A stretch of DNA of 64,000 nucleotides from the NCBI GenBank assembly GCA_024761205.1, contig JAMASS010000004.1:558001-622000 (forward strand), given 5' to 3'. Shown in pieces: positions 2,185-64,000 of this stretch; the stretch's first letter is position 1; the number at the start of each line of letters is the position of its first letter. This stretch comes from Limisphaerales bacterium. Its GTDB lineage: Bacteria > Verrucomicrobiota > Verrucomicrobiia > Limisphaerales > AAA164-E04. A program made the translations under genes and the position numbers. The notes beneath the pieces were generated by a model, which saw only the letters and a program-made list of their open reading frames with translations, was not told the DNA's origin and ran no database searches.

Positions 2185-2236
2185 GCGGCGAGGTTGAAAC
2201 CGAGCACTTTTGACAGGTTCCAGACACACTATCCAC

Positions 2237-3208: not shown

Positions 3209-3510
3209 GTTGCGAATCCGACAGACCTCGATGTGCGGCAATCATTGATCGCCGCTCGCTGCTTGTTGGGGACTGTCTACCAAGACGCATTTCATTCCGG
3301 AGTTTGAAATCACGGATAACGAGATGACACCGATCATTTCCTTAATTCGTGCAGTTCGAGTATCCGTGGTCAGAAGTAACCTCGGTCGCCGAGCCGTTCA
3401 GCTAGAAACGATTCCTCTGTGCTTCGTCCTCACGAGCCGATCTTAACTAATTGCTGTTTTCGCAAGGAGACAGTACCTAAGGAGGCGCTCAATTTTGTGT
3501 TCTGGGATTC
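3209..3510 (+). other. Intergenic region, no gene seen
   Basis: About 300 bases between the ABC ATPase and the next ORF. Both strands carry stops. A purine-rich AAGGAGG stands at about 3478-3484, some 26 bases before the ATG at 3511. That is too far for an ordinary ribosome binding site for that ATG, so the downstream gene may start at a CTG at 3502 or use this site poorly. Confidence 0.5.
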
Positions 3511-4113
3511 ATGAACGATTGGAAGATTCGTACTCGTTCGACTAAATGTCAGGCTTGTAGCGTTGTTTTCTCGAACGGACAGGTCTATCACACGTTGCTC
3601 GTTGATGAGCGGCATGAGTATCACCGAATTGATGTTTGTCAGGGTTGCTGGAATGGTCAGTATGGCCATGGCACCAGTGACTGCAAGGGGTTCGTCTCTC
3701 ATTGGCAGGCCAAGTTCATGCTGCCGCCACCGCCACCACCTGAGCCGATTCAAAGAGAGACGGCTGAATTGGCCTTGCGAAAACTGACCGATCTAAACGA
3801 TCGCGCCTATCGTCCAGCGTGTTTTATTCTATCAGCCATGTTGGAGCGAAAGCGAATGCTGAAGGTCCGCGAGCAGATTACCAATAAAGACGTTCGGACG
3901 TTTGTCTACGAACATGTGAAGACCGGTGACGTTTTTACCATTCACGATCCCAATCTCAAACTCAACGAACTGGAGGATATACAACGTGATGTGGCCAAGT
4001 TGCTCGAGAGCGGTGTCGACGAGTTTCTGAATTCCCGTGATGTCGATAAGGAAGACAGAGGGGCTCGAAGGGATCGCATTAGATCAAGCGAACCTGGGGC
4101 AGGAAGTTCCTGA
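3511..4113 (+). CDS. Hypothetical protein with N-terminal zinc-ribbon-like cysteines
   Basis: A 200-residue soluble protein. Two CxxC pairs (CQAC near residue 14 and CQGC near residue 44) and a further Cys near 59 suggest a treble-clef or ribbon zinc site. A proline run (seven Pro at about 71-77) separates this from a helical, charged C-terminal half that includes a KLNELEDIQRDVAKLLESG segment. No signal peptide or membrane helix. It lies 59 bases upstream of rnc on the same strand, which suggests co-expression with RNA metabolism. I do not recognise the family well enough to assign a function. The final 20 residues are unusually polar and could reflect a late frameshift. Confidence 0.75.
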   Translation: MNDWKIRTRSTKCQACSVVFSNGQVYHTLLVDERHEYHRIDVCQGCWNGQYGHGTSDCKGFVSHWQAKFMLPPPPPPEPIQRETAELALRKLTDLNDRAYRPACFILSAMLERKRMLKVREQITNKDVRTFVYEHVKTGDVFTIHDPNLKLNELEDIQRDVAKLLESGVDEFLNSRDVDKEDRGARRDRIRSSEPGAGSS

Positions 4114-4172
4114 AAGCGAGGAAAACGGAGGGACGGGAACGGTGGAGCGACTGTGGAATATACTAGGCGAGC

Positions 4173-4874
4173 ATGTCAAGCGGAAGCAGCAAAGATCAAT
4201 GGGATCGCCTGGCGGGGATCCTTGAGTATCGGTTTCAAGATCAAGATCTCCTGAAGCTTGCCCTGACTCATCCCTCCGTGGTTCAGGAGGATGAAGGGTT
4301 TTCCCAGCACAATCAACGTCTCGAGTTTCTTGGGGATGCCGTGCTGCAGGTCATCATCACCCATGATCTCTATGAGAATTTTCCGGATGCGGGTGAAGGC
4401 CCGTTGACCAAAGCCCGCGCACGACTGGTCAATCGGAGATCGCTCGCCGTCCACGCCCGTCGGTTGGGCTTGGGGGAGTATCTGCGGATCAGCCGAGGGG
4501 AGGAGATGAGCGGGGGCCGAGATCGGCAGTCCGCACTTGGGGATGCCTTTGAGGCGTTGGTGGGCGCAATCTATCTGGATTCCGGATTCGATGCTGCGTA
4601 CCGCCTGATTCGTCGCTTATTTCAGCCCGAATTGAGCGAAATCGAGTTGATCCCGAGTTTCGACAATCCGAAAGGGGAACTTCAGGAGATCCTCCAGGCC
4701 CAGTCCTCGACTCCGCCTCAGTATCAGCTCGAAGCGGTTTCCGGGCCGGATCATGATCGCCAGTTTGTTTGCGCAGTGTATCACAACGGGCGGGAACTCG
4801 GACGAGGGATTGGAAAAAGCAAGAAGGAGGCCGAGGGGCAGGCAGCACTGACGGCTTTGACGTCCCTTAGATGA
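4173..4874 (+). CDS. rnc: Ribonuclease III
   Basis: A 233-residue double-strand-specific endoribonuclease that processes rRNA precursors and structured mRNAs. The RNase III signature (RLEFLGDAVL, residues about 49-58) contains the catalytic Glu and Asp, and a second acidic patch is in LGDAFEALVGAIYLD. The C-terminal double-stranded-RNA-binding domain (about 160-230) ends with the conserved GxGxSKKEAEGQAA helix. Length is normal for the family. It is the last gene of the leading plus-strand group; a perfect palindrome lies about 70 bases downstream. Confidence 0.97.
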   Translation: MSSGSSKDQWDRLAGILEYRFQDQDLLKLALTHPSVVQEDEGFSQHNQRLEFLGDAVLQVIITHDLYENFPDAGEGPLTKARARLVNRRSLAVHARRLGLGEYLRISRGEEMSGGRDRQSALGDAFEALVGAIYLDSGFDAAYRLIRRLFQPELSEIELIPSFDNPKGELQEILQAQSSTPPQYQLEAVSGPDHDRQFVCAVYHNGRELGRGIGKSKKEAEGQAALTALTSLR

Positions 4875-5640
4875 GTGCTAGGCAATTGTGGTGTTCGGCT
4901 TGAAAAGACCGCGAAATGGACCGTTTGGGACCACCCGTGTGTGAATTTCACGCATTGTGCGTGAAATTTGTCACAGCACCCCAGATCTCAGCTCGGATTT
5001 GCCGGATTCTGGTGAATTAGCCGAGCACCGGGCTTCGTGTCGGGGAAATTCAACGATTGGCACGAAATAAGCTTTACACTGTAATGTAAGATTTCCGGTG
5101 GCATGAATGGCCTGTGTAACTGATAAGGTTTCAACGGTAGTTCGGCTCGACCACGCTGGCCAATCGAGCTGGATCGGTGGCTTTCGTGCCACCGGGTCTG
5201 TTTTTCTGAAATCTTAAAATCTGGCTCGTTAGCGAGAGGTGGTGCGATGGGCATCGTTCTCTTATTACGCCAAACGGATGATCTTGCAACTAGATGGGGT
5301 TAATCTCCACAAAGGGTACGAAGTTCGGGGTTCCAGGTTTAAAAAAACGCTGGGGAAAACGGGATTCTCAGGGTTTACGCTGTAGAATTTGCTGGTAGGC
5401 AGCGTATGCTTCGAGTCGCTCAAGTAGTCAACGATGGAAAATCCGAACACTAGAAGCTGACGAACTCAGTCGACGTTTCTGCTGCAAAGTCCTGAGTATA
5501 TATAATCCGCGGTTTTTTCTCCTCAGGGGTTAAGAATCGGACAGATGCGAATCGTTGCTGTGAGCGGATGATAGAAAGAGTCTTTATCCGCAGAAGACCC
5601 AGGCGAGCAAGCCATTTATTTCACTAGGGGAAGAATCGCC
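4875..5640. other. Long non-coding stretch between rnc and an accessory patch
   Basis: About 765 bases with no convincing ORF on either strand. It contains the palindrome listed separately. A TATAAT hexamer lies at 5501-5506, about 135 bases before the small ORF at 5641, without a convincing -35 partner at the standard spacing. The rest shows nothing I can name. Confidence 0.5.
4944..4968. repeat. Perfect 11-bp inverted repeat with 3-base spacer
   Basis: AATTTCACGCA and its exact reverse complement are separated by TTG. There is no T-tract on either strand, so it is not a canonical Rho-independent terminator. It could be a hairpin at the 3' end of the rnc transcript or a two-fold operator. 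Confidence 0.7.
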
Positions 5641-5793
5641 ATGAACGATGATACAACCAAAAAGTTGAACAAGGTAGTCCACATGAATGAATGGGAATTT
5701 TCGGATCACTTAGCGGTAAGACAGGAAAGTAGAAGAGCCCCTGAACCAAATCCCGATGCCGAAGCTGACGCACTAACCGAGGCTAGTCTTTGA
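5641..5793 (+). CDS. Small acidic hypothetical protein, 50 aa
   Basis: ATG at 5641 with a purine-rich AGGGGAAGAA seven bases or so upstream; stop TGA at 5791-5793. The 50-residue product begins MNDDTTKKLN and ends in an acidic, Ala-rich tail with no Cys and no membrane segment. It sits between rnc and the recombinase and could be a small regulator of the accessory patch or a chance ORF. The ribosome binding site and hydrophilic composition are the only support. Confidence 0.35.
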   Translation: MNDDTTKKLNKVVHMNEWEFSDHLAVRQESRRAPEPNPDAEADALTEASL

Positions 5794-5850
5794 ACGGGAT
5801 GCGGGTTGCTCGCCAACAGACGTAACACATTAGCGGGTCTATCATTAACC

Positions 5851-6810
5851 CTATAGGAAGTTTTGGCCTGCGTGGTCTTTGAATCTGTTTTGGTCGCGGA
5901 TGTATTTCATGACAGTAGCGGTGTTGGTGTGCCGGGTGACTTCCATGATTTTGTCTAGGCGGGCATTGTGCACGGCGGCGCTGGTGACGAAGCCCGCCCT
6001 CAAGCTGTGGGCAGCATATTCCTTGGGGTTTAGCCCTATCATCTCAGCATATTTCTTGACTGTCCGGGCGACATCATCGTGATGTAATTTATCTCCTCGC
6101 AAAGCTCCGTTCCGGCGCAATGTTCGGAACAGATACCCGTTTTTGATGCCTGCTTTTTTCATCCAACGGCGCAGGTGTTTGGCGGGTTGGATGTATTTTC
6201 CTTTGGGGATAGCTACTTGTTGTCCTTTGGCTTCCTGGTCTGTCTTGGACTTGCAGATGTTCACGATCAAGCCGCCACCGTCTTCTTTGGGTAGAAACTC
6301 TATGTCATCTACTTTGAGCGCACAGATTTCACTGCGGCGCAGGGCGGCTGAGAAACCTAGGGCAAGAACGGCTGCGTCCCGCAGACCTATCGTTGTGGTG
6401 CCGCAAGCCTTTATCATCTCTCGTATTTGCCTTTCTCTCAAAGCTTTTACCCGGCGGGGTGGTCGTCCCAGCTTCCGGCGCAGTCCGTTCAGGATCATCT
6501 TCACCTTGGGATGATCTGTCGGAGACGCCTTCTCGTGGTCTTTGTAACGCCGGTTAATGGCGCAGCAGATGACTGAAACTGTCCCTACCGAGAGCGGTTT
6601 GCCCGTTTCAAGGCTGGGTTTGGTGGCCTTCTCAATCAGGCAATTCGCTACAATATCCGGCGGTGCAAGCAGGGGCTCGACATTATGCCGGTTACAATAA
6701 TCAACAAAGTCTCGCCACGCTTTATCATAAGCCAACCGAGTGCTCTCGGATATAGCAGCAATCAAATACTCCTGCTGATAATCTTCTGTGCTGAATGAGT
6801 TGTCTGTCAT
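5851..6810 (-). CDS. Tyrosine recombinase (phage integrase family)
   Basis: A 319-residue site-specific recombinase. The N-terminal SAM-like core-binding domain covers residues 1-95, with a TRLAYDKAWRDFVDYC segment. The catalytic domain carries Arg158 (AALRRSE), a Lys in the beta-hairpin (KSKTD), His268-x-x-Arg271 (HSLRAG), His294 (TRHTN) and the nucleophile Tyr303 (KYIRD). All catalytic positions are present, so it may be active. Its neighbours are broken genes and small ORFs rather than phage structural or conjugation genes, so it appears to be the survivor of a decayed island. No adjacent tRNA was found to act as its attachment site. Confidence 0.95.
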   Translation of the reverse strand: MTDNSFSTEDYQQEYLIAAISESTRLAYDKAWRDFVDYCNRHNVEPLLAPPDIVANCLIEKATKPSLETGKPLSVGTVSVICCAINRRYKDHEKASPTDHPKVKMILNGLRRKLGRPPRRVKALRERQIREMIKACGTTTIGLRDAAVLALGFSAALRRSEICALKVDDIEFLPKEDGGGLIVNICKSKTDQEAKGQQVAIPKGKYIQPAKHLRRWMKKAGIKNGYLFRTLRRNGALRGDKLHHDDVARTVKKYAEMIGLNPKEYAAHSLRAGFVTSAAVHNARLDKIMEVTRHTNTATVMKYIRDQNRFKDHAGQNFL

Positions 6811-6886
6811 GCCTTTTTCTAACTCCCATTGAAAGGATCATCATGGACAATGCAGACTAGCAGGACGCCGCTGTAAGATCGGGGTT

Positions 6887-7270
6887 ATGGAATATGCGCG
6901 TCAAAAGTGGCAGTGTGCTGATCGGCGCCGAGGTCTTGAAAGGACCGTGCAGCGACTTCTGGAGAAAGTTCAGACCATCATTTCTCGGGAAATGAAAACG
7001 CTGGAGTCCGGCGATTCATTACCATCCGGCTTTCCGAGCGACGCCGTACCGTTCATTTGTGGTCTTGCATCCATCGGCGCCAAGAAATCCAGCAATGGCA
7101 CACATGTTGGAATTTGGGTTAGGCGAGACCAACATGAATTTGGCGACAAACTTCATAGCACGGCAAAAGCAGCTGATGCAGATTACGATAAAATCGGTTC
7201 CGTGGAAGGAAGATCGTCCATAATTAGTGAAAGAGGCGACCTCCATTTCAAAATTTACAATGCCATTTAG
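6887..7270 (+). CDS. Uncertain ORF in the decayed patch
   Basis: A 127-residue ORF divergent from the recombinase, starting 77 bases from its start codon. It is rich in Arg, Lys and Ser, with no signal peptide, membrane helix or motif that I recognise. The region around it contains proven pseudogenes, so it may be a relic or a chance ORF. Confidence 0.25.
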   Translation: MEYARQKWQCADRRRGLERTVQRLLEKVQTIISREMKTLESGDSLPSGFPSDAVPFICGLASIGAKKSSNGTHVGIWVRRDQHEFGDKLHSTAKAADADYDKIGSVEGRSSIISERGDLHFKIYNAI

Positions 7271-8061: not shown

Positions 8062-8430
8062 TCATGGCTTTCCTACGAAGAGTTCGCGGCACCCATTGAT
8101 CACCTGAGGATGCTCCTGGAAATTCGGCGAGGTATAAACCATTTCCAGAAGTTTGATCATGGCCTGAAAACGGTTGAGGTTTCTCTGCTGAGCCCGAAGG
8201 GTGGCGAGAATGGTGAGGACGGCTTGACGGGCGGCATTTTTACCGAACTCAAGATTAACCTCAGCGCCGACTTTCCCCGTGATCAGTGTACCCATCCGGT
8301 CGCAACGGCTCATGGCCGGAGACGGGGGGCAAGATTCCCGACTGATGACGAGGGGCTTGTAGGCCCTGACTGACTTCGGTGCGGGAGGAAGTTTTAGTCT
8401 GAGTGCCGTAAGTTTTGCTTCTGCATTCAT
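8062..8430 (-). pseudogene. Degenerate RidA/YjgF-family gene
   Basis: The N-terminus (AEAKLTALRLKLPPAPKSV, then YKPLV) and the middle (GTLITGKVGAEVNLE, KNAARQAVLTILATLRAQ) match RidA-family enamine/imine deaminases. The missing strand, ILPPVSGHEPLRPDGY, is found in the overlapping frame at about 8300-8370, so two compensating frameshifts interrupt the gene. The product stops after EHPQVINGCRELF, where the family normally continues about 35 residues to the GxLPxxxxVEI end. Truncation plus frameshifts make it non-functional. Confidence 0.75.
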
Positions 8431-8771
8431 TGGTATATCTGGTTCGGGGATTGAAGTGGGTGGGTAACGGGCCGTTCAAGACAGAAAGCCGCGATTGATG
8501 ATCGCAGCTTTCTGTGAAGTGACGTTTCGTGAATATTCTGGTGCTGGCGCTTAGTCTTCCTTGAGGCCCTTATGGCAGGCCTTACTTTCTCCAATTGGAG
8601 GTATATGCCAATCAGGTCTTTAAGTTCAGCCTCCGAAGCATTTTCTTCGCGCAGTTTGGCGACGATGGAGGTCTTGCCCTTGTGTCTCTTCTTCATGATC
8701 GAGGAAATGTTGTCCTCGTCCTTCTCATGATGATCGGCGCCAAGATTGGGCGCTAGGCGCGATGCCGTCAA
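8427..8771 (-). CDS. Uncertain ORF upstream of the RidA relic
   Basis: 114 residues, Lys/Arg-rich. An internal MKKRHKGKTSIVAKLREEN segment is faintly like the N-terminus of IS3-type OrfA transposases, but the similarity is too short to claim. Its stop overlaps the ATG of the RidA relic by four bases. It may be a relic itself; nothing else in it is recognisable. Confidence 0.25.
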   Translation of the reverse strand: MTASRLAPNLGADHHEKDEDNISSIMKKRHKGKTSIVAKLREENASEAELKDLIGIYLQLEKVRPAIRASRKTKRQHQNIHETSLHRKLRSSIAAFCLERPVTHPLQSPNQIYQ

Positions 8772-8921
8772 CGAGTGTTGTGGTGAGAGTGATCGGGAAC
8801 CAGAATATCTCTTTTCATGAAACTGGTTTGTTGACTTACGTTTGGTTAAGCACTGAAATTGACGCGGGAACTATAAGATCATTGAAGGTAGGTCAATCCT
8901 GTCGCCGGTCCAGATGGATAT

Positions 8922-9716
8922 CTAGGGTTGTGTTTGCAGCCGTTGGATCTGACTCTTTTGCAGCCAACCTACCCGTTGTTGTGGGTCTCGGATTTGATGC
9001 CATCCTTCCTTGTCATCAAGGATCTCAACCTCAACGCCGTCGATAAGATTGTGACTGCTCTTAGACTCTTCGAACGGTCCGAATCGAACGACGGCTTCGC
9101 CACTAGTGACAACGGCATATTGCTTTCCGAATCGTTCGTTGGCAGCGAACAGCAAGAGAATACCGGTAAAAAGAAATGCGAGGCCCATGAGCTTAGAGAG
9201 CGTCGACAGCAGACCTCCCTTGGCCGTCAAGAGGAGCGCGCACGCGCCGCAAGCCATCCAAGCCCAGAACGGAATGAGGGCAAGAAGCGTCCATTCGTTG
9301 AGGGTCAATTGAAGGAGAAACTGACGCCAGAAGTTTGTCGGGATGCTGGTGTTGGGACCAAGTTTTTCTCGGGCAAACTGGACATTCGCCAAGATATCTG
9401 GATCCCTTGGCGAGCGGTACAGCGCCTCGTAATACTGCGCGATTGCGTGTCCGATTTGTGATGATTGGTAGAGGGCGTTTCCGAGATTAAATCGGATAAC
9501 CGCGGAATCCGTGCCGCCGTCGATGAGCTGGCGATAGGCGTTTACGGCGGCTAGATACTCGCCTTGTTCGTAGAGAATGTTGGCGTCATTGAACTGAGTT
9601 TTCGGATCCGCAAGCACAGCTCCTGTGCCTGAGAGAATGAGACAGGAGAGGAGAGTGGTCTTTTGTATGACGACGAGGACCGGACGCCCGATAGTTACCG
9701 ACGCTCTTGAGATCAT
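8922..9716 (-). CDS. batE: BatE-like TPR and SH3 domain membrane protein
   Basis: 264 residues. A signal-like segment (about 18-36) is followed by TPR repeats (about 40-110: NDANILYEQGEYLAAV, NLGNALYQSSQIGHAI, YYEALYRSPRDPDIL). Two transmembrane helices lie around 140-190, then a bacterial SH3-type domain (about 200-258, VRFGPFEESKSS...GWHQIRD...VGWLQ). This order is the BatE architecture. Its start codon overlaps the batD stop as ATGA, indicating translational coupling. It is the last gene of the MoxR/Bat operon, which is thought to act in envelope stress or protein maturation; direct function is unproven. Confidence 0.88.
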   Translation of the reverse strand: MISRASVTIGRPVLVVIQKTTLLSCLILSGTGAVLADPKTQFNDANILYEQGEYLAAVNAYRQLIDGGTDSAVIRFNLGNALYQSSQIGHAIAQYYEALYRSPRDPDILANVQFAREKLGPNTSIPTNFWRQFLLQLTLNEWTLLALIPFWAWMACGACALLLTAKGGLLSTLSKLMGLAFLFTGILLLFAANERFGKQYAVVTSGEAVVRFGPFEESKSSHNLIDGVEVEILDDKEGWHQIRDPQQRVGWLQKSQIQRLQTQP

Positions 9717-11542
9717 CGTGCCGTTGAATCGGGGAGATTCTGTAATGTAACGAGAGCACGCTCCGCTCGTTCGGTAAGTTTAACTAATTCTTCGCTGGAA
9801 TTGACCGACGCGTAGCGGGACTGGTTGCAGATTTGAAATAATTGGTCAAGGGCGTTTCTGGTCTCCGAATCAAGACCGTGATTGCGAAGTTTCGTTTCGA
9901 TGACGGCTTCGGTGATCGCATTCGCAGGGAGATCCAATCGTTCTCCAATCTGTTCCTGCAAAAGTCGGAATAGAGTGGCGAAGAATTCGCTGGACTGATT
10001 TCGGGCAGCCATATCTCGGAGGTCTCTGAGGCTTCTTTCGACGACAGTTTTCACTCGTTTTTTGCGTAGGGCTCGAGGGTTGCGATTGAGGGTGTTGCGT
10101 CGTGTCCGGTAGACGTAGCTGGCAATCCAGGCGGCCAAGGGAATGACTTGTAACCAAAGGAAAGCGGGTTGCCGTAGCCAGGGAGGACTGACGGTGCTGA
10201 TGGTGTCGAGGCGCGGTTTGATATGCACAATGTTGGTGGCGATATTTAGGGGGGGCTGGTTGGGGCCGGCATTGGCGACGATGGTCGGCTGAGTCGCGGT
10301 GGTGAGGTTGGGTTTTACGACTAATGGAATAGGTGGTTGGGTCAATGTTTTGTAGCGCTCCTCCAAAGGATCAAAAAAGCTGAGCTCGATCTCAGGCAGG
10401 CTTTCGATTTCGGCATTGTTGGGAATGACGATCTTTTCAAAGGTTTTTATGCCGCTGAGCCCGAGTTTGTCGGTAGGGGTTACGGTGGCGGTTTCGGGGT
10501 ATTGCTTGAACTCTCGCCAAGACTCGAAAGACGGCATTTGCAACGCTTCGAGCGCTCCTCTGCCCCGGATTCTCATGGTGATGGTGATCGGGTCACCGGC
10601 CGTGACGTCCGTGGGAGAGGCTTGTACATCCATGGTGAACTTACCGACGCCCCCGTTAAAGCTGTCCGGTTGACCTTCCTCGGGAAGGGGCTTCACATTC
10701 AAACTGGCCGGCTCGTATTCAAGGGTCACATCGCGTCGCACGGTCGAACCGAGATCGACGAAGCCTGGGAAGAACGAATTAAACGCCCCTCTCTGGCGAC
10801 GTGCGGAGTTGTTGCGTAAGTATAGAGGGACTTTCCACGTAACCGGACCGATGGAGAGCTCTCCGGTTTTGACAGCGCGAACGAGGTAATGGAACGTCAC
10901 TCGGTCATAAATACTGTTTCCGACTTGCGTTCGGGATTGGCTGGGCTGGCCGACTTCATCAATGACGAATCCATCCGAGGGAATCACCGGCTTCTCCTCC
11001 AGCTTGGCGTTTAACTCGAAGAGTTCGACAGCCATTTGGAACACCTCCCCAACGTAGACCTCCTGCTTAGAAATCTGCACCCGGATAAAGGCATATTGGC
11101 TGTAGTCCCGGCCCTTTGACGCGGTCAAACGAAGGGCTCTGGTCGTGTAGGTTTTTCCCTGAATCTTGGATTCAATGGCTGGGATGGTGTAGGTCCCGAC
11201 TTTTTCGGGCACGATGTTGAATTGGTGAATCACGGAATGGGTTTCCGTGCGGCGACCATTGACAATGCTGATGTTCGAACTGCTTAAGGGGCCCTCATAG
11301 GTCACCGTCAAACCGTCAATCTCCGGTATGGTCGGGGGGGTGTCGGGCTTGCAATTCGTGTAGCGGAGTTGAAGGATGACCGGTTCCCCCATGGGCACTG
11401 AGTTCGCCGTCAAGGCCGCGTTGTACATGTGTCGGGCGGTTCCGGGATTCAAGGGATGTTGCCCTTGGCCGCTCATGGCAATTGCCAGCATTGCCGTCAA
11501 AACCAAATCAGGCCAACAAGGATTCTTCCGATTGATATTCAT
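9713..11542 (-). CDS. batD: BatD (oxygen-tolerance type) membrane protein
   Basis: 609 residues. An N-terminal export signal (LVLTAMLAIAMSG) is followed by a long periplasmic region with tandem beta-sandwich repeats (for example GEPVILQLRYTN, VGEVFQMAVELFE, AGDPITITMRIRG). A transmembrane helix lies near residues 468-485 (FLWLQVIPLAAWIAS), then a cytoplasmic helical tail of about 110 residues. This matches BatD, the large partner of BatA/BatB vWA proteins. It lies between a small membrane ORF and batE on the minus strand with almost no spacing, consistent with one transcript. Confidence 0.9.
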   Translation of the reverse strand: MNINRKNPCWPDLVLTAMLAIAMSGQGQHPLNPGTARHMYNAALTANSVPMGEPVILQLRYTNCKPDTPPTIPEIDGLTVTYEGPLSSSNISIVNGRRTETHSVIHQFNIVPEKVGTYTIPAIESKIQGKTYTTRALRLTASKGRDYSQYAFIRVQISKQEVYVGEVFQMAVELFELNAKLEEKPVIPSDGFVIDEVGQPSQSRTQVGNSIYDRVTFHYLVRAVKTGELSIGPVTWKVPLYLRNNSARRQRGAFNSFFPGFVDLGSTVRRDVTLEYEPASLNVKPLPEEGQPDSFNGGVGKFTMDVQASPTDVTAGDPITITMRIRGRGALEALQMPSFESWREFKQYPETATVTPTDKLGLSGIKTFEKIVIPNNAEIESLPEIELSFFDPLEERYKTLTQPPIPLVVKPNLTTATQPTIVANAGPNQPPLNIATNIVHIKPRLDTISTVSPPWLRQPAFLWLQVIPLAAWIASYVYRTRRNTLNRNPRALRKKRVKTVVERSLRDLRDMAARNQSSEFFATLFRLLQEQIGERLDLPANAITEAVIETKLRNHGLDSETRNALDQLFQICNQSRYASVNSSEELVKLTERAERALVTLQNLPDSTAR

Positions 11543-11545
11543 GAA

Positions 11546-11869
11546 TTATTCGCACGCCTCCCAAGCGTCACAAGATATCCTTAGCTCGACTCGTATATTA
11601 TCGTTGGAGATTAAATCATGCTGATTGACGCCGCGTACTGTCTTCAACCATTCAACCGCGTCTTCGGTCCCGGGGCGGTCCGTATCAATTTGGTCTTTCG
11701 GAACGCCGGGGCAGTTTTTGGCCGGTAAAAATATGGCCAACCGAGTCTTGCTGACAGCGGCGGCGATGGCGTTAGCGTTCCAAAGCATTACCACCAGGAG
11801 CAAGAGCAAGCCGACGAAGGGACCGGGGCAATGGAGTAAACCTAAACAGAAATGGCGATAGAGCCGCAT
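11546..11869 (-). CDS. Small single-pass membrane protein within the bat operon
   Basis: 107 residues from the ATG at 11869; a TTG at 11893 would extend it by eight. One hydrophobic helix (about residues 8-40, LLLLLVVMLW) precedes a soluble C-terminal domain with two Cys (NCPGVPKD and SCDAWEACE). It fills the gap between batC and batD with 3 bases to batD and 17 bases to batC, so it is probably translated. I know no standard Bat component of this shape, and the function is unknown. Confidence 0.6.
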   Translation of the reverse strand: MRLYRHFCLGLLHCPGPFVGLLLLLVVMLWNANAIAAAVSKTRLAIFLPAKNCPGVPKDQIDTDRPGTEDAVEWLKTVRGVNQHDLISNDNIRVELRISCDAWEACE

Positions 11870-11886
11870 TGTTTTGTGACAGGGGT

Positions 11887-12732
11887 TTACCAATCCTTGA
11901 ACGCGTTTCTAGGGAGGCGTTTCTGGGGCGGACGGAAGATCATGGCTCGAGCTTGATCGCGCTCAGCATCGAGCAGTTGCTTGGCTTGCTCCGGTGTCAT
12001 TTTTCCGGGAGAGGGTTCTGTCGCATAGGAATCTTTTTTGTCCTCGCCACTCTGTTGGGCTTCGGAAGGTTGAGAGTCCTGTTGCTTGGGCTCATGCTGC
12101 TGTTCCGATTCGTTCGGTTGCGGTTGGGATTCTTGTTCTTGTTCCTGGTTTTGATCTCCGGATGGTTCCTGCGGCTTTTGCTGGCCGTTGTTCTGTTGCT
12201 GTTGTTGGAGCTCTTCGAGGCGCCGCTTGACGAAGTCCAGATTCTCCTGAGCCAGGGTGTCGGCTTCATTGATGGTGACCGCGTGTTGATAGCGTTGAAT
12301 GGCCTGTTTCCAGGCGGCCATCTTTTGTTCCGGATCGGCAGCGGATTCGCCCAAACGAAACAGCGAGTTGCCCATGTTGTAGTGAGCTTGTTGTTGCAGT
12401 TTGAGGTCGGGTGCGAGTGAGGCAGCGTCAAATTGCTCGACCGCATCAGTCATTTGTCCGGCCCTGTAGGCTGCGACGCCCGCGTTGTAGGTAAAGCGCG
12501 GGTCATCTGGGTTCTCAAGCGAAAGGTAGCGATAAATCTCCAGGGCGTCTTCATAGCGGCCTTCCTGGAAATAGCGCTTGGCCTCCCCGGCTGAGTCAGC
12601 ATGAGATTTGGTGGCGGTTTCGGCGAAGAAAAGGGTGAGCAGCAGCAGCCAGCTGATCCGCTGCATTTGCCTAAATGCCACCGAAATCTCTCGGTGAGAT
12701 GCAAGGTCAGTCTTCATTCTCTTCCTAGGCAT
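11887..12732 (-). CDS. batC: BatC-like TPR protein
   Basis: 281 residues from the ATG at 12732, which overlaps the batB stop as TAATG. An upstream extension to 12855 lies inside batB and is rejected. A signal segment (ISWLLLLTLFFAE) is followed by four TPR-like repeats (AKRYFQEGRYEDALEIYR, YNAGVAAYRAGQMTDAVEQF, YNMGNSLFRLGE, AIQRYQHAVTINEADTLAQE). A Gln/Glu/Pro-rich low-complexity tail then ends in a conserved basic motif (FRPPQKRLPRNAFKDW). The order TPR then charged tail is typical of BatC, a periplasmic scaffold partner of the Bat vWA proteins. Confidence 0.87.
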   Translation of the reverse strand: MPRKRMKTDLASHREISVAFRQMQRISWLLLLTLFFAETATKSHADSAGEAKRYFQEGRYEDALEIYRYLSLENPDDPRFTYNAGVAAYRAGQMTDAVEQFDAASLAPDLKLQQQAHYNMGNSLFRLGESAADPEQKMAAWKQAIQRYQHAVTINEADTLAQENLDFVKRRLEELQQQQQNNGQQKPQEPSGDQNQEQEQESQPQPNESEQQHEPKQQDSQPSEAQQSGEDKKDSYATEPSPGKMTPEQAKQLLDAERDQARAMIFRPPQKRLPRNAFKDW

Positions 12733-59733: not shown

Positions 59734-60663
59734 CTAGCGAGCAATAACTTTGCTCCGGGACATTCGGGCTTTGAGAAAATCGAATAGCTGCAACTCCAGC
59801 GGTTGCTCGGTGGTGAGAAAATGGTAGCCGATACCGTTCTTGTTACAAATAGACTCCACGGTCGCAAGGTGTTTCTCAAGTCTTTCGAGGTAGCCTTTAC
59901 GCGCCTGATTAGGGTCTACATAGACCTCTTTCCCAGACTCCACATCCTGAAAGAAATTGGCTTGATCGAAAGTAAAGCGGCGTTCGGCTGGGTCGAGAAG
60001 CTGGAACACCTGAACTTCGTGCCCGCAGGCCCGAAGCAAACGCAGGCGATTTTCCAAGGCCTCAATAGGCGCCAACAGGTCTGAAATCAACACCACCAGC
60101 CCGCGCCTGCGAACCAACTCGACGATTCGCTGCAGCGGGCTTTCAAGATCGGTTGAAGCGCCACTCGGCGGCTTCTCCAGAGCGAGCATGATTCGCCGGA
60201 GATGACCGCTGCGGTTTCGCGCGGGAAGGAAGTCATTGATCTTGTCCGCAAACGATAGCAGCCCCACCGCATCGCCTTGCTGGAAGAGAAAATAACCCAG
60301 GGTGGCTGCCAGTGTGTTGGCGTAGTGGTATTTTGTATAGTCCCGGCTGCCATACTCCATTGACCGACTTTGATCCACCAGCAGATGACATCGGAGGTTG
60401 GTCTCATCCTCAAACTTTTTGATGTAGTAGCGATCACTCCGAGCATAAAGCTTCCAATCGAGGTAACGGGGATCATCTCCCGGCGAATATTGTCGATATT
60501 CGCTGAACTCGACGGAAAAGCCATGGAAAGGACTGCGATGGAGCCCGTTCCAAAAACCCTCGACGATCACCTTCGCCCGCAGTTCAAGGTTTTTGACAGC
60601 CATGAGGGCTTGGGGACTGACGAACCCCTGCTGACCCAAGACACTCTTTCCTTCTCTTGCCAA
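59734..60663 (-). CDS. DUF58 protein, second copy
   Basis: 309 residues. The DUF58 core motif FSEYRQYSPGDDPRYLDWKL lies near residues 52-71, followed by a vWA-like fold with LVDQSRSMEYG and, later, GLVVLISDLLAP. Compared with the copy at 15460-16413, the metal-site loop is more complete (Asp-x-Ser-x-Ser kept as DQSRS). No MoxR gene lies upstream; the adjacent upstream DNA is the cassette array. It could share the MoxR of the main operon. Confidence 0.93.
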   Translation of the reverse strand: MAREGKSVLGQQGFVSPQALMAVKNLELRAKVIVEGFWNGLHRSPFHGFSVEFSEYRQYSPGDDPRYLDWKLYARSDRYYIKKFEDETNLRCHLLVDQSRSMEYGSRDYTKYHYANTLAATLGYFLFQQGDAVGLLSFADKINDFLPARNRSGHLRRIMLALEKPPSGASTDLESPLQRIVELVRRRGLVVLISDLLAPIEALENRLRLLRACGHEVQVFQLLDPAERRFTFDQANFFQDVESGKEVYVDPNQARKGYLERLEKHLATVESICNKNGIGYHFLTTEQPLELQLFDFLKARMSRSKVIAR

Positions 60664-60723
60664 ATGAAACCCGCTTCCCTTGAAATTGCCTTCCCCGAGA
60701 AACTACCCACGATTCCCCGCCAA

Positions 60724-60817
60724 GCAAACAAAAACGCCCACCCCGGAAAAGCGGAGCGGGCGAAGCGGGCGCAGAAGAAAAGGCGGTTGCCGCAAGGCCA
60801 GCCCTCAGCCGATGCCG
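60724..60817. repeat. About 94-bp repeat, copy 1 (contains a minus-strand terminator)
   Basis: The segment from GCAAACAAAAACGCCC to CAGCCGATGCCG recurs with few changes at 61242-61338. Read on the minus strand, CGCCC...GGGCG forms a hairpin followed by TTTTTG (about 60730-60762), so it can terminate the array transcript before the DUF58 gene. Confidence 0.8.
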
Positions 60818-60818
60818 C

Positions 60819-61151
60819 CTAATAATCAAACACCTTATATCCGGCGCGGAGCAACAAACTAAGGGCAGTTCCCCCGGAAAGAAACAACAGGAACGCCGCT
60901 CCCAGCAGGACCGGAACTCGCTGCCGCCGACTGCCCCACACCGCCACCGGAAGCAACATGACCGCGTTTAGGAGAGTCAGAAACACAACGACCAAACCTA
61001 GGCACGCCTCTGCAAGCGAAAATCCGGACAAAGCTGGAAGGCAAAAATCAAAGAAACCAAAAACAACAGCGACCACAAAGATCGCCCGTGCCCACCAAAG
61101 CCGCTTTGTCAAGCATTTCTGATTGGGGACAAAGTAGGTTTTCAAGTCCAT
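60819..61151 (-). CDS. Small membrane protein of the cassette array, copy 4
   Basis: 110 residues from the ATG at 61151 (MDLKTYFVPNQKCLTKRL). A reading from 61211 includes a relic of the upstream tail and is rejected. Three hydrophobic segments are present, with VMLLPVAVWGSRRQRVPVLL in the middle. It is a close homologue of the gene at 61326-61658 and more distantly of those at 61722 and 62293. Shared marks are an N-terminal [YI]F[LIV] motif with a basic patch and the LPVxxWG motif. Function unknown. Confidence 0.7.
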   Translation of the reverse strand: MDLKTYFVPNQKCLTKRLWWARAIFVVAVVFGFFDFCLPALSGFSLAEACLGLVVVFLTLLNAVMLLPVAVWGSRRQRVPVLLGAAFLLFLSGGTALSLLLRAGYKVFDY

Positions 61152-61168
61152 GCCTGCGCATCCTTTCA

Positions 61169-61237
61169 TCAGCGTCGTTCGTTGCGCCCGTCTCTCGTCA
61201 GATCCCGGCAACCGTAAATCTTAAAGCTATCCATCCC
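61169..61237 (-). pseudogene. Relic of the B-protein tail before copy 4
   Basis: Reads GMDSFKIYGCRDLTRDG then stops at 61169. It corresponds to the last residues of protein B (GIESWQIYGCADLQRNGP). It sits between the repeat at 61242 and the start of the small membrane gene. Confidence 0.7.
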
Positions 61238-61241
61238 GCCG

Positions 61242-61338
61242 GCAACAAACAAAAAACCCGCCCCGGAAAAACCGAGGCGGGCGAAGCGGGCGCAGGGGAA
61301 AAGGCGGTTGCCGCAAGGCCAGCCCTCAGCCGATGCCG
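61242..61338. repeat. About 97-bp repeat, copy 2
   Basis: Matches 60724-60817. It follows the 110-residue membrane gene whose stop (61326-61328) lies inside the repeat. Confidence 0.8.
61251..61281 (-). terminator. Intrinsic terminator within repeat copy 2
   Basis: On the minus strand CCCGCC pairs with GGCGGG, extended by three inner pairs after one mismatch, and is followed by TTTTTT. It ends the transcript of the small membrane gene at 61326-61658. Confidence 0.8.
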
Positions 61339-61658
61339 TAACGTGCGGCGCGGTCCAATAAACTAAGGGCTTGCATCCAGAAACCGTATAACAGGAACGC
61401 CACTCCCAGCAGGGCCGGAACCCTTTGCCGCCAACTGCCCCACACCACCACCGGAAGCAAAACGACAGCATTCAGGAGCATCAGAAAGTCAAAGGCCAAA
61501 CCAAAGCATGCCTCTGCAAGCGAAAATCCAGACAAAGCCGCATTCTCAAACATACTAATTACATTAGCAAATACAACGATTGCCAGAGCAGTGTATAACC
61601 GCTTGGTCAAAGCGGACTGCTCCGGTATGAAGTAATGTCTGATTTTGTCTTTGTCCAT
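61326..61658 (-). CDS. Small membrane protein of the cassette array, copy 3
   Basis: 110 residues, starting MDKDKIRHYFIPEQSALTKR with AGGAG upstream. It has three hydrophobic segments, SGFSLAEACFGLAFDFLMLL in the second and VVLLPVVVWGSWRQRVPALL in the third. The SGFSLAEAC stretch and LPVxVWGS.RQRVP are shared with copy 4, so the two come from a recent duplication. Function unknown. Confidence 0.72.
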   Translation of the reverse strand: MDKDKIRHYFIPEQSALTKRLYTALAIVVFANVISMFENAALSGFSLAEACFGLAFDFLMLLNAVVLLPVVVWGSWRQRVPALLGVAFLLYGFWMQALSLLDRAARYGIG

Positions 61659-61683
61659 TTTCTCCTGTCCGTTCTTCTTAGGG

Positions 61684-61737
61684 TCAGGGCGCGTCGGGAG
61701 GGGGCGGAGGGTCGGTCCGCCTTAAATCCCGGCAATC
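61684..61737 (-). pseudogene. Relic of the B-protein tail before copy 3
   Basis: Reads DCRDLRRTDPPPPPDAP and then stops. The CRDL core matches the YGC(A/R)DL tail of protein B. It overlaps the 3' end of the 99-residue membrane gene in a different frame. Confidence 0.5.
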
Positions 61738-62021
61738 CATTCAAAAAATATACTCACCCAAAAAACCAGAGGGACGACGGACAGCAACCATGCCAGCCGC
61801 TTCTGCCGACCGATTCCCCATATCGCAACGGGAAACAAGAAAAACGGGATGGCACACATACAGGCACCGAAAAAATCAAGTAATAAGGGATTCGGGCGGG
61901 GAGAGGAAACGATAGCCAAGATCCATGCCAAATAAACGAACAGTGACCCAATCAGCCGGTGTTTCACTTTGCCGAACCGTCTGCCAAGGAAGTATTCCTT
62001 GAAGTTAAAATTTCGCTTCAT
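61722..62021 (-). CDS. Small membrane protein of the cassette array, copy 2
   Basis: 99 residues. The basic N-terminus with FKEYFLGRRFGKVKHRLI is followed by hydrophobic segments near 22-40, 46-68 and 77-95. It has FLFPVAIWGIGRQKRLAWLL, the family LPVxxWG-type motif with a basic patch. Homologous to the other three small membrane genes but diverged. Function unknown. Confidence 0.7.
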   Translation of the reverse strand: MKRNFNFKEYFLGRRFGKVKHRLIGSLFVYLAWILAIVSSPRPNPLLLDFFGACMCAIPFFLFPVAIWGIGRQKRLAWLLSVVPLVFWVSIFFEWIAGI

Positions 62022-62046
62022 ATTTCATCCTCTCCCCGCCTCAAGG

Positions 62047-62190
62047 TTACGGCCCATTTCTTTGCAGGTCCGCGCATCCATAGATCTTATAATTTTCCAT
62101 GCCCTCGAACCCATGCTCCAATGCCTTAGTTTTGAAAGCTTCCATGCATGTATTCAACGGCCGGTTCGCCATTCGGTTGGAAAAAGGCAA
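62047..62190 (-). pseudogene. Relic of the B-protein C-terminus before copy 2
   Basis: About 47 codons: PFSNRMANRPLNTCMEAF, KALEHGFEGMENYKIYGC and ADLQRNGP, ending in TAA. It aligns end to end with the last 47 residues of protein B (MANQPLYECMRLF, KALEHGFEGIESWQIYGC). No start codon or upstream part remains. Confidence 0.85.
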
Positions 62191-62214
62191 TCGAGGCGAT
62201 CAATTAGTCGATGC

Positions 62215-62526
62215 CTAACGAAACCATGATATCAGGGCTGCTACCAGAGTCGCTAACGGAGGAATAGACAACAAGACCGCCGCGATCTTTTGTCAGCGTT
62301 TTCCCCATAAGATCACCGGAAGCATGACAACCAAGCCCACAAGAAGTATGGAGTATCCGATCATGTCCCGAGGATGGCTGCGTTCACCACTGAATCTCAG
62401 AGAAGGCATGAACACTCCACTCAAAAGATAAGCCGCGAGTGCCCATAAAAGACGCCAATAGAAACTATTGAAACGTTTGCCAAGAAAGATTTTTCGGTAA
62501 TCCCGTTTCACTGTCCTGCCTTTCAC
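62215..62526 (-). pseudogene. Small membrane protein of the cassette array, copy 1, with in-frame stop
   Basis: Starts at 62526 (MKGRTVKRDYRKIFLGKRF), seven bases after the B-protein stop. It runs to VVMLPVILWGKR, where a TGA at 62293-62295 ends a 77-residue product. The same frame continues QKIAAVLLSIPPLATLVAAL to a TAG at 62215-62217. That matches the third hydrophobic segment of its homologues, where Arg stands at the TGA position. A single CGA to TGA change explains the truncation. Confidence 0.75.
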
Positions 62527-62532
62527 TTGTGG

Positions 62533-63022
62533 TTAAGGACCGTTGCGCTGCAAGTCCGCGCATCCGTAAATTTGCCAACTTTCTATTCCCTCGAATCCAT
62601 GTTCCAGAGCCTTATCGGTGAACAACCGCATACATTCATACAGAGGCTGGTTCGCCATCCAGTTGTTAAAGAAAACGCCTAGGGCTTCCGCCATTTCGTT
62701 GTGTTTAGTTCCCCCGTAGGTAAGATTGTTTATTGTAATCAAAGGGTGAAGATACCAAGGACCTTCGGAACCTCTCGGCACTGAAATTGTTTCTGACCAC
62801 AGCACGATGGCTCGGGGTTGGCGTCCCGCCCTTTGATACTCCGCCCCGGTGCTGGTCACTTGCGGAATGCCGAAGGCGTCGCACCACTCTTTCCCGGCGG
62901 TATTGCAGCCCATGAGGATGACGAGGCGGTAGGGATACTGGTTCACGTTTTCGCTGTCGGACGGAGCCGACGGTGGCCACAGACTGCGCCCCGAACTCCT
63001 GATTGATCTGAACGGCGTTCAT
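62533..63022 (-). pseudogene. Array protein B, caspase/CHAT-like, frameshifted
   Basis: Starts at 63022 with an ATGA overlap on gene A (MNAVQINQEFGAQSVATV). After a one-base shift near 62965 it continues SAPSDSENVNQYPYRLVILM and GCNTAGKEWCDAFGIP. The strand-GC motif resembles the catalytic Cys block of caspase-like and CHAT peptidases, but no paired His motif was placed with confidence. The C-terminus is KALEHGFEGIESWQIYGC. The readable 3' part alone (137 codons from a GTG at 62946) could still be translated. Closely followed by a small membrane gene, as expected of a two-gene cassette. Confidence 0.65.
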
Positions 63023-63693
63023 GAGGTTTCGGGCGGCGGCGGGCGGAAGGCGCGAGCGTCGATGCACTGCGGGATGTTCTCCGTGGCCGGATCGAAACCC
63101 ACCAGGGGCTTGCCCTCCCAGTTTTCAAATTGAATGATGCAGTCGCCGTCCGGCCGGCCATCCTCCAAAAAACCCATCCAAACATAAGGAGCATCCGGAA
63201 GACAATTTCCGCCGTTCGGATAATCGTCAACACTTCCCTGCACCCGTTCTTTGTATTCCTCCCAGGTCTCGGTGAGATACCAGTAAGTGCCATAATCATC
63301 ACCGGTGGCACACAGTTCGGCGTAGGCATCCCGGTCCGGGTTCAGGTCGTTGCGTTCCCCGCCCACCACGGCGTTGCGGGCGTTGCACGCCGAGCGAAAC
63401 CAGATCGGTTGAGGTTTGTAACGGAACCCCAGACCCAGAGCACCGAGACCGATGATTTCCCCTTCTTTTGAGTGGATCGGCTCAATCTCATCCATAATCT
63501 CACAACGCTTTTCCTGCTGATACAACCGCCATGGATGGTAGAGTTTTCCCTGCCAATGTGCAGGCCATTGATGGTAGAAGAAACTATAGAAATATCCCCC
63601 TTTTCCCGGGGACAGAATGGCTGCCGCCTTTATCCGCCGGGAGGGCGGGTCGTAAAACATATACCAGTCTTTGTCCGGAGATTTGATCTCCAC
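63019..63693 (-). CDS. Array protein A, unknown function
   Basis: 224 residues with a GTG start (VEIKSPDKDWYMFYDPPSRR) and a GGAGGG site upstream. The protein is rich in aromatic residues and Gly/Asp, without a signal peptide or membrane helix. It ends DARAFRPPPPETS. Its stop overlaps the start of gene B. The C-terminal 22 residues recur at the right edge of the window in a second copy, and its N-terminus recurs at 63717-63806. I do not recognise the family. Confidence 0.7.
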   Translation of the reverse strand: MEIKSPDKDWYMFYDPPSRRIKAAAILSPGKGGYFYSFFYHQWPAHWQGKLYHPWRLYQQEKRCEIMDEIEPIHSKEGEIIGLGALGLGFRYKPQPIWFRSACNARNAVVGGERNDLNPDRDAYAELCATGDDYGTYWYLTETWEEYKERVQGSVDDYPNGGNCLPDAPYVWMGFLEDGRPDGDCIIQFENWEGKPLVGFDPATENIPQCIDARAFRPPPPETS

Positions 63694-63716
63694 AAGCCCT
63701 CCTTTCGTTACAATAG

Positions 63717-63806
63717 CTATGTTTGTCCTTGCAATGCGGAATGACCGCCGCTTTCATCCACCGGGAGGGACGGGTCGTAAAAGGCATACAAGCTCTCGAT
63801 TGCCAT
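63717..63806 (-). pseudogene. N-terminal relic of a second protein A
   Basis: 29 codons from the ATG at 63806 with AAGGAGAG upstream: MAIESLYAFYDPSLP, then out of frame and a TAG. At DNA level the stretch continues to match the first 80 bases of gene A (TTTTACGACCCG..CCTCCCGG), so it is a truncated duplicate. Confidence 0.7.
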
Positions 63807-63823
63807 CGACGTCTCTCCTTTGC

Positions 63824-63931
63824 TTACGGCGCCAGAGCTTTCCAGACGGGGAAGCGTAGCCCCACTAGGTTGGCGCAGGCGGTAACCACAGCCTGCGCCC
63901 CGGACTCCTGATTGATTCGAACGATGTTCAT
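63824..63931 (-). pseudogene. N-terminal relic of a second protein B
   Basis: 35 codons from the ATG at 63931: MNIVRINQESGAQAV matches MNAVQINQEFGAQSV of the longer copy. The similarity then ends at TACANLVGLRFPVWKALAP before a TAA. Confidence 0.75.
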
Positions 63932-64000
63932 GAGGTTTCGGGCGGCGGCGGGCGGAAGGTGCGGGCGTCGATGAAGGGCTGCGGGAGGTTCTCCGTAGCC
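63928..64000 (-). CDS. C-terminal end of a second protein A, cut by the window edge
   Basis: Reads ATENLPQPFIDARTFRPP and PPETS to a TGA that overlaps the next ATG, the same junction as in the complete A-B pair (ATENIPQCIDARAFRPPPPE). The rest lies beyond base 64000. Confidence 0.75.
   Translation of the reverse strand, partial: ATENLPQPFIDARTFRPPPPETS

What the first reader, a model, noticed from the sequence alone, without database searches (positions are those of the whole stretch)
60724..64000. Tandem cassette array of A, B and small membrane protein genes
Seen directly: one A-B-membrane unit, a second partial A-B pair at the right edge, and four homologous small membrane genes, all on the minus strand with overlapping starts and stops (ATGA at both A/B junctions, 6 bases from B to the membrane gene). 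Small membrane partners that multiply behind a decaying larger gene resemble immunity genes of polymorphic toxins or abortive-infection pairs. B has a GCNT block like caspase/CHAT proteases. I know of no described system with this composition; the toxin/immunity reading is inference.
Basis: partly seen in the sequence, partly recalled or inferred. Interest (0 to 1): 0.78.

Follow-up and report, generated by a model that had tools for sequence, protein, structure and literature searches.

The report
Toxin-immunity gene graveyard in Verrucomicrobiota
The repeated genes at the end of this window are most likely a stockpile of bacterial "antidote" genes, each still carrying a scrap of the toxin gene it once sat behind, left by repeated swapping of toxin modules; the principle is known, but these toxin and antidote families appear undescribed.

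Summary
The array is real and runs about 5 kb beyond the window. It is not one A-B-membrane system but two toxin-immunity series joined end to end. "A" is the putative immunity gene of a secreted toxin whose intact gene (598 aa, signal peptide, PPC-like domains) lies just right of the window, followed by five tandem A genes. "B" is not a gene: it is the 3' remnant of a second secreted toxin with a C-terminal caspase/CHAT-like domain, and it lacks the catalytic-His half. The four membrane genes are putative immunity genes of that second toxin. The repeating unit is [toxin 3' tip + immunity gene]: 12 of 13 membrane genes carry the caspase tip IYGCxDL directly upstream, and A genes carry the other toxin's tip. 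Two PPC genes share their N-terminus and switch abruptly to unrelated C-termini; a third shares the PPC part. The caspase/small-membrane linkage recurs in two other Verrucomicrobiota genomes. Sister genomes lack the insert between moxR and DUF58. Toxicity and neutralisation are inferred, not shown.

The parts
60819..61151 (-). small membrane gene m1 (110 aa, 3 predicted TM segments), putative immunity gene of the caspase-like toxin; ORF can be read from a TTG at 61211
   Evidence: profile match (C34:618840-619151); hydropathy; sequence
61169..61219 (-). 3' tip of a caspase-like toxin gene (IYGCRDLTRDGRNERR*) directly upstream of m1
   Evidence: motif; sequence
61326..61658 (-). small membrane gene m2 (110 aa, 3 TM)
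61684..61738 (-). partial caspase-toxin 3' tip (MDCRDLRRTDPPPPPDAP*) upstream of m2, overlapping the end of m3
61722..62021 (-). small membrane gene m3 (99 aa, 3 TM)
62047..62190 (-). 3' remnant of a caspase-like toxin gene (last ~47 codons) upstream of m3
   Evidence: (C34:620050-620190, 62% identity)
62293..62526 (-). small membrane gene m4, truncated by an in-frame TGA; homology continues down to about 62212
62533..62997 (-). 'B': 3' remnant (about 140 codons, Cys half only, no start codon) of a PPC-caspase-like toxin; full-length relative on contig C11
62943..63022 (-). 3'-tip remnant of toxin 1 (MNAVQINQEFGAQSVAT...), fused into B in another frame; its ATG overlaps the A stop (ATGA)
63019..63693 (-). 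A5, putative cytoplasmic immunity gene of toxin 1 (224 aa, no TM or signal)
63717..63806 (-). 5' fragment of another A gene (MAIESLYAFYDPSLP...)
63824..63931 (-). 3'-tip remnant of toxin 1 (35 codons) between A4 and A5
63928..64000 (-). 3' end of A4 (251 aa; continues outside the window, L009:3929-4684)
59734..60663 (-). flank: DUF58/von Willebrand-type gene (named from knowledge of the family), normally adjacent to moxR; marks the left edge of the insertion
   Evidence: adjacent to moxR in sister genomes G002, G003 and in G010

Best explanation
The region is the 3' (older) half of a polymorphic secreted-toxin locus inserted between the host genes moxR and DUF58. A constant 5' module (promoter, signal peptide, PPC-like beta domains, about 300 codons) is joined to interchangeable C-terminal toxin modules, each followed by its own immunity gene. 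When a module is replaced or duplicated by homologous recombination, the displaced immunity gene stays behind with the last codons of its former toxin, so strings of [toxin 3' tip + immunity gene] build up. Here two such strings abut. One is the A series: soluble proteins, expected to neutralise the 598-aa toxin and its variants in the cytoplasm. The other is the small membrane-protein series, expected to protect the cell envelope against a C-terminal caspase/CHAT-fold toxin of which only the 3' end (B) is left in this window. The retained immunity genes would protect against sibling or competitor strains that still carry the other toxin versions. Shown: anatomy, homologies, remnants, shared N-termini, fold of the caspase-like family, conserved linkage with the membrane gene. 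Inferred: toxicity, delivery to other cells, neutralisation, current expression.
For: (1) The C34 toxin (L009:7168-8964) and the C11 toxin (L012:1258-4077) are 91-97% identical in DNA over promoter and N-terminal half and then diverge abruptly at about codon 298. C45 shares the PPC part (up to 94% DNA identity locally) with a third C-terminus containing DUF3238. N-termini match the NCBIfam family NF038127 (above cut-off for C11 and C45; 26.8 against 29 for C34). (2) Each C-terminus is followed by its own duplicated gene family: A x5, membrane x3-5, HEAT-like x2. (3) 12 of 13 membrane genes carry the caspase 3' tip directly upstream; the same motif occurs 7 times in 444,712 control codons. The 13th has a partial tip. 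(4) Toxin-1 tips stand between A genes; C24 holds one still joined to the toxin-1 WGNS segment. (5) A and membrane paralogues stay open although A frames would survive comparable neutral divergence in about 0-3% of simulations. (6) Caspase-like gene plus small membrane gene recur in L109 and L108; these two ORFs are the top profile hits among 2368 ORFs, E 4e-4 and 2e-3. (7) Fold: AlphaFold model of homologue L109, pTM 0.78; best PDB matches SAVED-CHAT, legumain, caspases; His and Cys motifs conserved. (8) Empty site in sister genomes. (9) Published logic: strings of immunity genes at toxin 3' ends as remnants of former cassettes, and C-terminal caspase toxins (PMC3482391); tspA 3' fragments inside the tsaI immunity cluster (PMC9484751).
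Against: No toxicity, export or neutralisation was or could be tested. The toxin-1 C-terminus has no recognised fold and only two weak matches elsewhere. The A fold could not be predicted (pLDDT 33). In most Verrucomicrobiota the caspase-like protein is a single gene followed by a different secreted partner, not by an immunity array, so the family as a whole need not be toxins. The C11 caspase gene has a frameshift in its first PPC copy. The genome has 92 contigs, so small sequence errors are possible. dN/dS near 1 in some pairs also fits relaxed constraint.
Confidence: 0.74

Rival explanations
1. The caspase-like protein and the small membrane protein form a protein-processing, sorting or regulated-death module inside the producing cell. 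A secreted or surface peptidase is restrained by a membrane partner, and its duplication has nothing to do with competition.
For: Most relatives are single-copy secreted caspase-like proteins with a conserved secreted partner gene, as expected of a physiological protease-regulator pair. CHAT and caspase relatives often act within the cell (SAVED-CHAT is the best fold match).
Against: Here the N-terminus is shared with two proteins of unrelated C-terminus, and the membrane partner is multiplied in units with toxin tips, which is the polymorphic-toxin pattern. It does not explain the A and HEAT-like series.
Confidence: 0.14
2. The array is mere debris: tandem duplication and gene conversion around a decaying toxin locus, with no function left in the A and membrane copies.
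For: B is a fragment, m4 and several A pieces are broken, the C11 toxin gene is frameshifted, and the C24 locus has no intact toxin gene. Some dN/dS values are near or above 1.
Against: Seven full-length A genes and at least nine full-length membrane genes remain open, most at synonymous divergences of 0.4 or more, where neutral decay would leave about 0-3% of A frames open per lineage at 0.2-0.3 substitutions per site. The intact 598-aa toxin heads the C34 array.
Confidence: 0.08
3. A, B and the membrane gene are one three-gene defence or abortive-infection system.
For: The A-remnant-B-membrane order occurs twice, in C34 and C24 (73.5% DNA identity across the join).
Against: B is a remnant without a start and without the His half. 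Membrane genes follow the caspase gene without A directly in front in C11, L108 and L109. Five A genes follow another toxin without B. No defence-family match. The shared A-B join is one ancestral junction inherited by both copies.
Confidence: 0.02
4. Silent cassettes for antigenic variation of a surface protein.
For: Conserved blocks and variable stretches in the A copies, and exchange between loci (476 bp at 100% identity between C11 and C24).
Against: Each A and membrane copy has its own start and stop. A proteins have no signal or TM segment. No expressed recipient gene sharing their sequence was seen.
Confidence: 0.02

Closest known systems
Polymorphic toxin systems (Zhang, Aravind and co-workers, PMC3482391)
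   Same: Constant secreted N-terminus, swapped C-terminal domains, adjacent immunity gene, strings of immunity genes downstream as remnants of former cassettes; Tox-Caspase as C-terminal domain; HEAT-repeat immunity proteins are listed there.
   Different: The PPC-like chassis, the A family, the 3-TM membrane family, the toxin-1 domain and this caspase-like family match no Pfam, NCBIfam or PADLOC model except the generic PPC-like part.
Staphylococcal EsaD/EsaG and TspA/TsaI immunity arrays, streptococcal TipC (PMC9484751)
   Same: Tandem non-identical immunity paralogues behind a polymorphic toxin, conserved blocks with variable cores, multi-TM immunity proteins (TsaI), a toxin 3' fragment inside the immunity cluster.
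   Different: No type VII secretion seen. Here virtually every immunity copy keeps its own toxin tip, and two unrelated immunity series are joined in one locus.
Homogeneous polyimmunity loci (PMC3482391)
   Same: Four or more tandem paralogues in the same orientation with short spacing.
   Different: That paper says they are never interrupted by toxin cassettes; here toxin remnants lie between the genes, and the series has a parent toxin. Several such loci exist in this genome.
CHAT / caspase clan CD peptidases
   Same: Predicted fold and conserved His and Cys motifs in the parent domain.
   Different: No sequence-level match to Pfam or PDB families. The window copy lacks the His half.

Membership tests
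Polymorphic toxin system | Same N-terminal trafficking part with different C-terminal-most domains | tested here: met
   C34 versus C11 versus C45; abrupt end of identity at about codon 298
Polymorphic toxin system | Immunity-type gene directly downstream of the toxin gene, with remnants of former cassettes | tested here: met
   A1 starts about 15 bases after the toxin-1 stop; toxin tips before the A and membrane genes. Gene order only.
Polymorphic toxin system | Signal for export | tested here: met
   N-terminal hydrophobic segment at residues 10-28 of the 598-aa protein, signal-peptide-like by inspection; route to the target cell unknown
Polymorphic toxin system | C-terminal domain is toxic and the neighbour protein neutralises it | not testable with these tools
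   needs expression experiments
Homogeneous polyimmunity locus | Tandem immunity paralogues, same orientation, short spacing | tested here: met
Homogeneous polyimmunity locus | Never interrupted by toxin genes or cassettes (PMC3482391, section 39) | tested here: not met
   toxin 3' tips between nearly all copies, so not filed as such
CHAT/caspase clan CD peptidase (parent of B) | Caspase-like alpha/beta fold | tested here: met
   model of homologue L109, pTM 0.78; SAVED-CHAT E 2.7e-7, caspase-8 and legumain E about 2e-4
CHAT/caspase clan CD peptidase (parent of B) | Catalytic His and Cys | tested here: met
   GHG and (N/D/M)GC motifs conserved in the C11 protein and relatives
CHAT/caspase clan CD peptidase (window copy B itself) | Complete domain with both catalytic residues | tested here: not met
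   only the Cys half is present and no start codon
Abortive-infection / anti-phage system | Match to a known defence family | tested here: not met
   PADLOC: no match for A, the membrane proteins or the G000 toxins

The most novel reading that the evidence does not exclude
A family of secreted CHAT/caspase-fold toxins used between Verrucomicrobiota cells and countered by a dedicated three-helix membrane immunity protein, in loci where the conserved toxin 3' tip serves as the recombination site that collects immunity genes one after another, keeping a readable record of past toxins.
Probability: 0.35. Interest if true: 0.68.

Novelty: new variant of a known kind. Interest (0 to 1): 0.5.

Why it matters
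If right, it adds undescribed toxin and immunity families to a phylum where interbacterial conflict is little studied, including a caspase/CHAT-fold effector with a small membrane partner. It also gives an unusually legible record of how immunity arrays form, because almost each immunity gene still carries the tail of the toxin it came with. That makes the cassette-displacement model directly testable by comparing strains.

Tried and rejected
A single three-gene A-B-membrane system: rejected, because B is a remnant and the partners segregate. Housekeeping or phage origin of A: no Pfam, NCBIfam or PADLOC match, no plasmid or phage match, no viral-contig relative, none confirmed in the GTDB collection by pattern plus tblastn, and a single weak relative in one sister species that aligns at start and end. 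Fold of A: single-sequence AlphaFold failed (pLDDT 33). PDB sequence search for A and for the caspase family gave nothing significant. Viral-contig search for the caspase domain found nothing. The toxin-1 domain against 285 other class genomes gave two weak hits. Intergenic repeat as a mobile element: 14 copies, mostly within these arrays, not pursued.
Full report
Where it lies. The window is C34:558001-622000 of a 4.94 Mb, 92-contig genome. Relatives named in the GTDB collection are nearly all Verrucomicrobiota, including subdivision 3, so the phylum guess is right; the order is probably Limisphaerales (inference). The array does not end at the window edge. L009 (C34:618000-637000; window position = L009 position + 59999) shows the rest.

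Anatomy of the C34 locus, in transcription order (minus strand). moxR (L009:10159-11163); an unrelated 262-aa gene; toxin 1 (L009:7168-8964, 598 aa: signal-like N-terminus, PPC-like domains, unique C-terminus); then A1 to A5 (L009:7152 down to 3020). After A5 comes a toxin-1 tip fused out of frame to B, then m4, a B tip, m3, m2, m1, and DUF58. In sister genomes G002 and G003, and in G010 of the same family, moxR and DUF58 are neighbours, so about 9.5 kb is inserted here.

What A is. Seven full-length A genes exist in this genome: five in C34, one in C24, one in C11, plus fragments. They are 203-251 aa, 43-87% identical to one another, with no TM or signal segment in the copy tested. Conserved DNA blocks at the start, the inside and especially the 3' end alternate with variable stretches, the pattern reported for EsaG and TipC (PMC9484751). 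[quoted passage not shown]

What stands between A genes. Each A stop overlaps an ATG (ATGA) that opens a ~35-codon frame, MNxVxINQEFGAQSVATACANLVGVRF... On C24 the same sequence is the direct continuation of toxin-1-like sequence (TFVIWGNSDTHAAEFERAFREYANG...DQEFGAQSVATACANLVGVRF). This pairs with the toxin-1 segment VLFAVWGNSGATAERFEAAFRDYARD (E 0.0037). The small frames are therefore read as toxin-1 3' tips.

What B and the membrane genes are. B matches residues 79-220 of a 220-residue query from the C-terminus of the 939-aa protein on C11 (57% identity). That protein has the same PPC N-terminus as toxin 1, then a TSP3-like stretch and a caspase-like domain with FFWFGHGH and LVILMGCET motifs. 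Four membrane genes of the same family follow it. Upstream of 12 of 13 membrane genes in C34, C24 and C11 the caspase 3' tip (IYGCxDL) is readable; the control rate is 7 in 444,712 codons, and the 13th has a partial tip. The unit is thus [caspase-toxin tip + membrane gene].

Independent support. A sequence search finds the caspase-like domain in 17 other genomes of 384 in the class, and a profile-guided scan finds it in 17 loci of the GTDB collection, mostly Verrucomicrobiota, as the C-terminal end of large secreted proteins. In most, a different secreted gene follows. In L109 a 116-aa membrane protein lies between the caspase gene and that partner, and in L108 a 121-aa membrane protein lies after the partner. 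Those two ORFs are the best matches of the window's membrane family among 2368 ORFs of 29 loci (E 4e-4 and 2e-3; next best 1.4). A wider search adds nothing comparably strong. The caspase domain of L109, aligned with 14 relatives and the window fragment, gave pTM 0.78; its best PDB matches are SAVED-CHAT, legumain and caspases. This shows the fold for the family, not for the window fragment, which lacks half of it.

Polymorphism. C34 and C11 are 91-97% identical in DNA from about 150 bp before the start codon to about codon 298 and then unrelated. C45 has a third protein with PPC repeats and a DUF3238 C-terminus (score just above Pfam's cut-off), followed by two tandem HEAT-like paralogues (70% identical) with a signal and a C-terminal TM segment. 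Exchange between loci is recent: 476 bp are 100% identical between C11 and C24, and 469 bp of the DUF58 flank are 98.9% identical between C34 and C24.

Selection. Pairwise dN/dS among A genes is 0.34-1.15 and among membrane genes 0.22-1.36. In simulation without constraint, A frames would survive 0.2-0.3 substitutions per site in about 0-3% of cases. So the frames are kept while the protein sequence changes fast, as expected of immunity proteins; relaxed constraint in some copies is not excluded.

Mechanism, and what is inferred. The best reading is a polymorphic secreted-toxin locus whose displaced immunity genes have piled up behind the active toxin, as described in general terms by Zhang et al. 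(PMC3482391: single recombination at the toxin 3' tip brings toxin and immunity together; strings of immunity genes are remnants). It should not be called a polyimmunity locus in their strict sense, because toxin remnants interrupt it. Toxicity, target, delivery and neutralisation remain untested. That A acts in the cytoplasm and the membrane proteins at the inner membrane is inferred from sequence alone.

Verdict. The sequence observation is good, and the immunity idea is right in kind. The composite A-B-membrane unit and the existence of B as a gene are not. Novelty lies in the families and in the legibility of the tip-plus-immunity units, not in the principle.

Noticed in passing
L022 (C45:36000-48000), 1735-7173: Third PPC-type secreted gene with a DUF3238 C-terminus, followed by two tandem HEAT-like paralogues; probably another toxin/immunity set.
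   Followed up: partly
L010 (C24), 3513-3800 and about 5009-5480: Two partial 5' copies (about 98-99% identical) of the DUF58 gene that flanks the array in C34; one is fused in frame to a toxin-1 3' end.
   Followed up: partly
window 60717-60822 and 13 other places: About 100-bp intergenic repeat, mostly between membrane genes of these arrays, with short copies on C45, C27 and C7; perhaps a terminator or recombination hot spot.
   Followed up: partly
L012 (C11), about 3600-4400: Frameshift in the first PPC copy of the C11 caspase-like gene; decay, phase variation or assembly error not distinguished.
   Followed up: no
L108-L124, L092-L103: A widespread Verrucomicrobiota family of large secreted proteins ending in a caspase/CHAT-like domain, paired with a secreted partner gene; no Pfam model. 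Locus L118, with two such domains, is labelled Bacteroidetes.
   Followed up: partly
L144 (G001), 8381-8938 and 11420-12478: A lone distant relative of A in a sister species, about 3 kb from an RHS/YD-like fragment on the other strand.
   Followed up: partly
L011 (C11), 6157-6900: Methyltransferase-like gene directly upstream of a toxin-1 tip and an A gene.
   Followed up: no
L009, 9217-10005: 262-aa gene of unknown family inserted together with the toxin locus between moxR and DUF58; no Pfam match.
   Followed up: no
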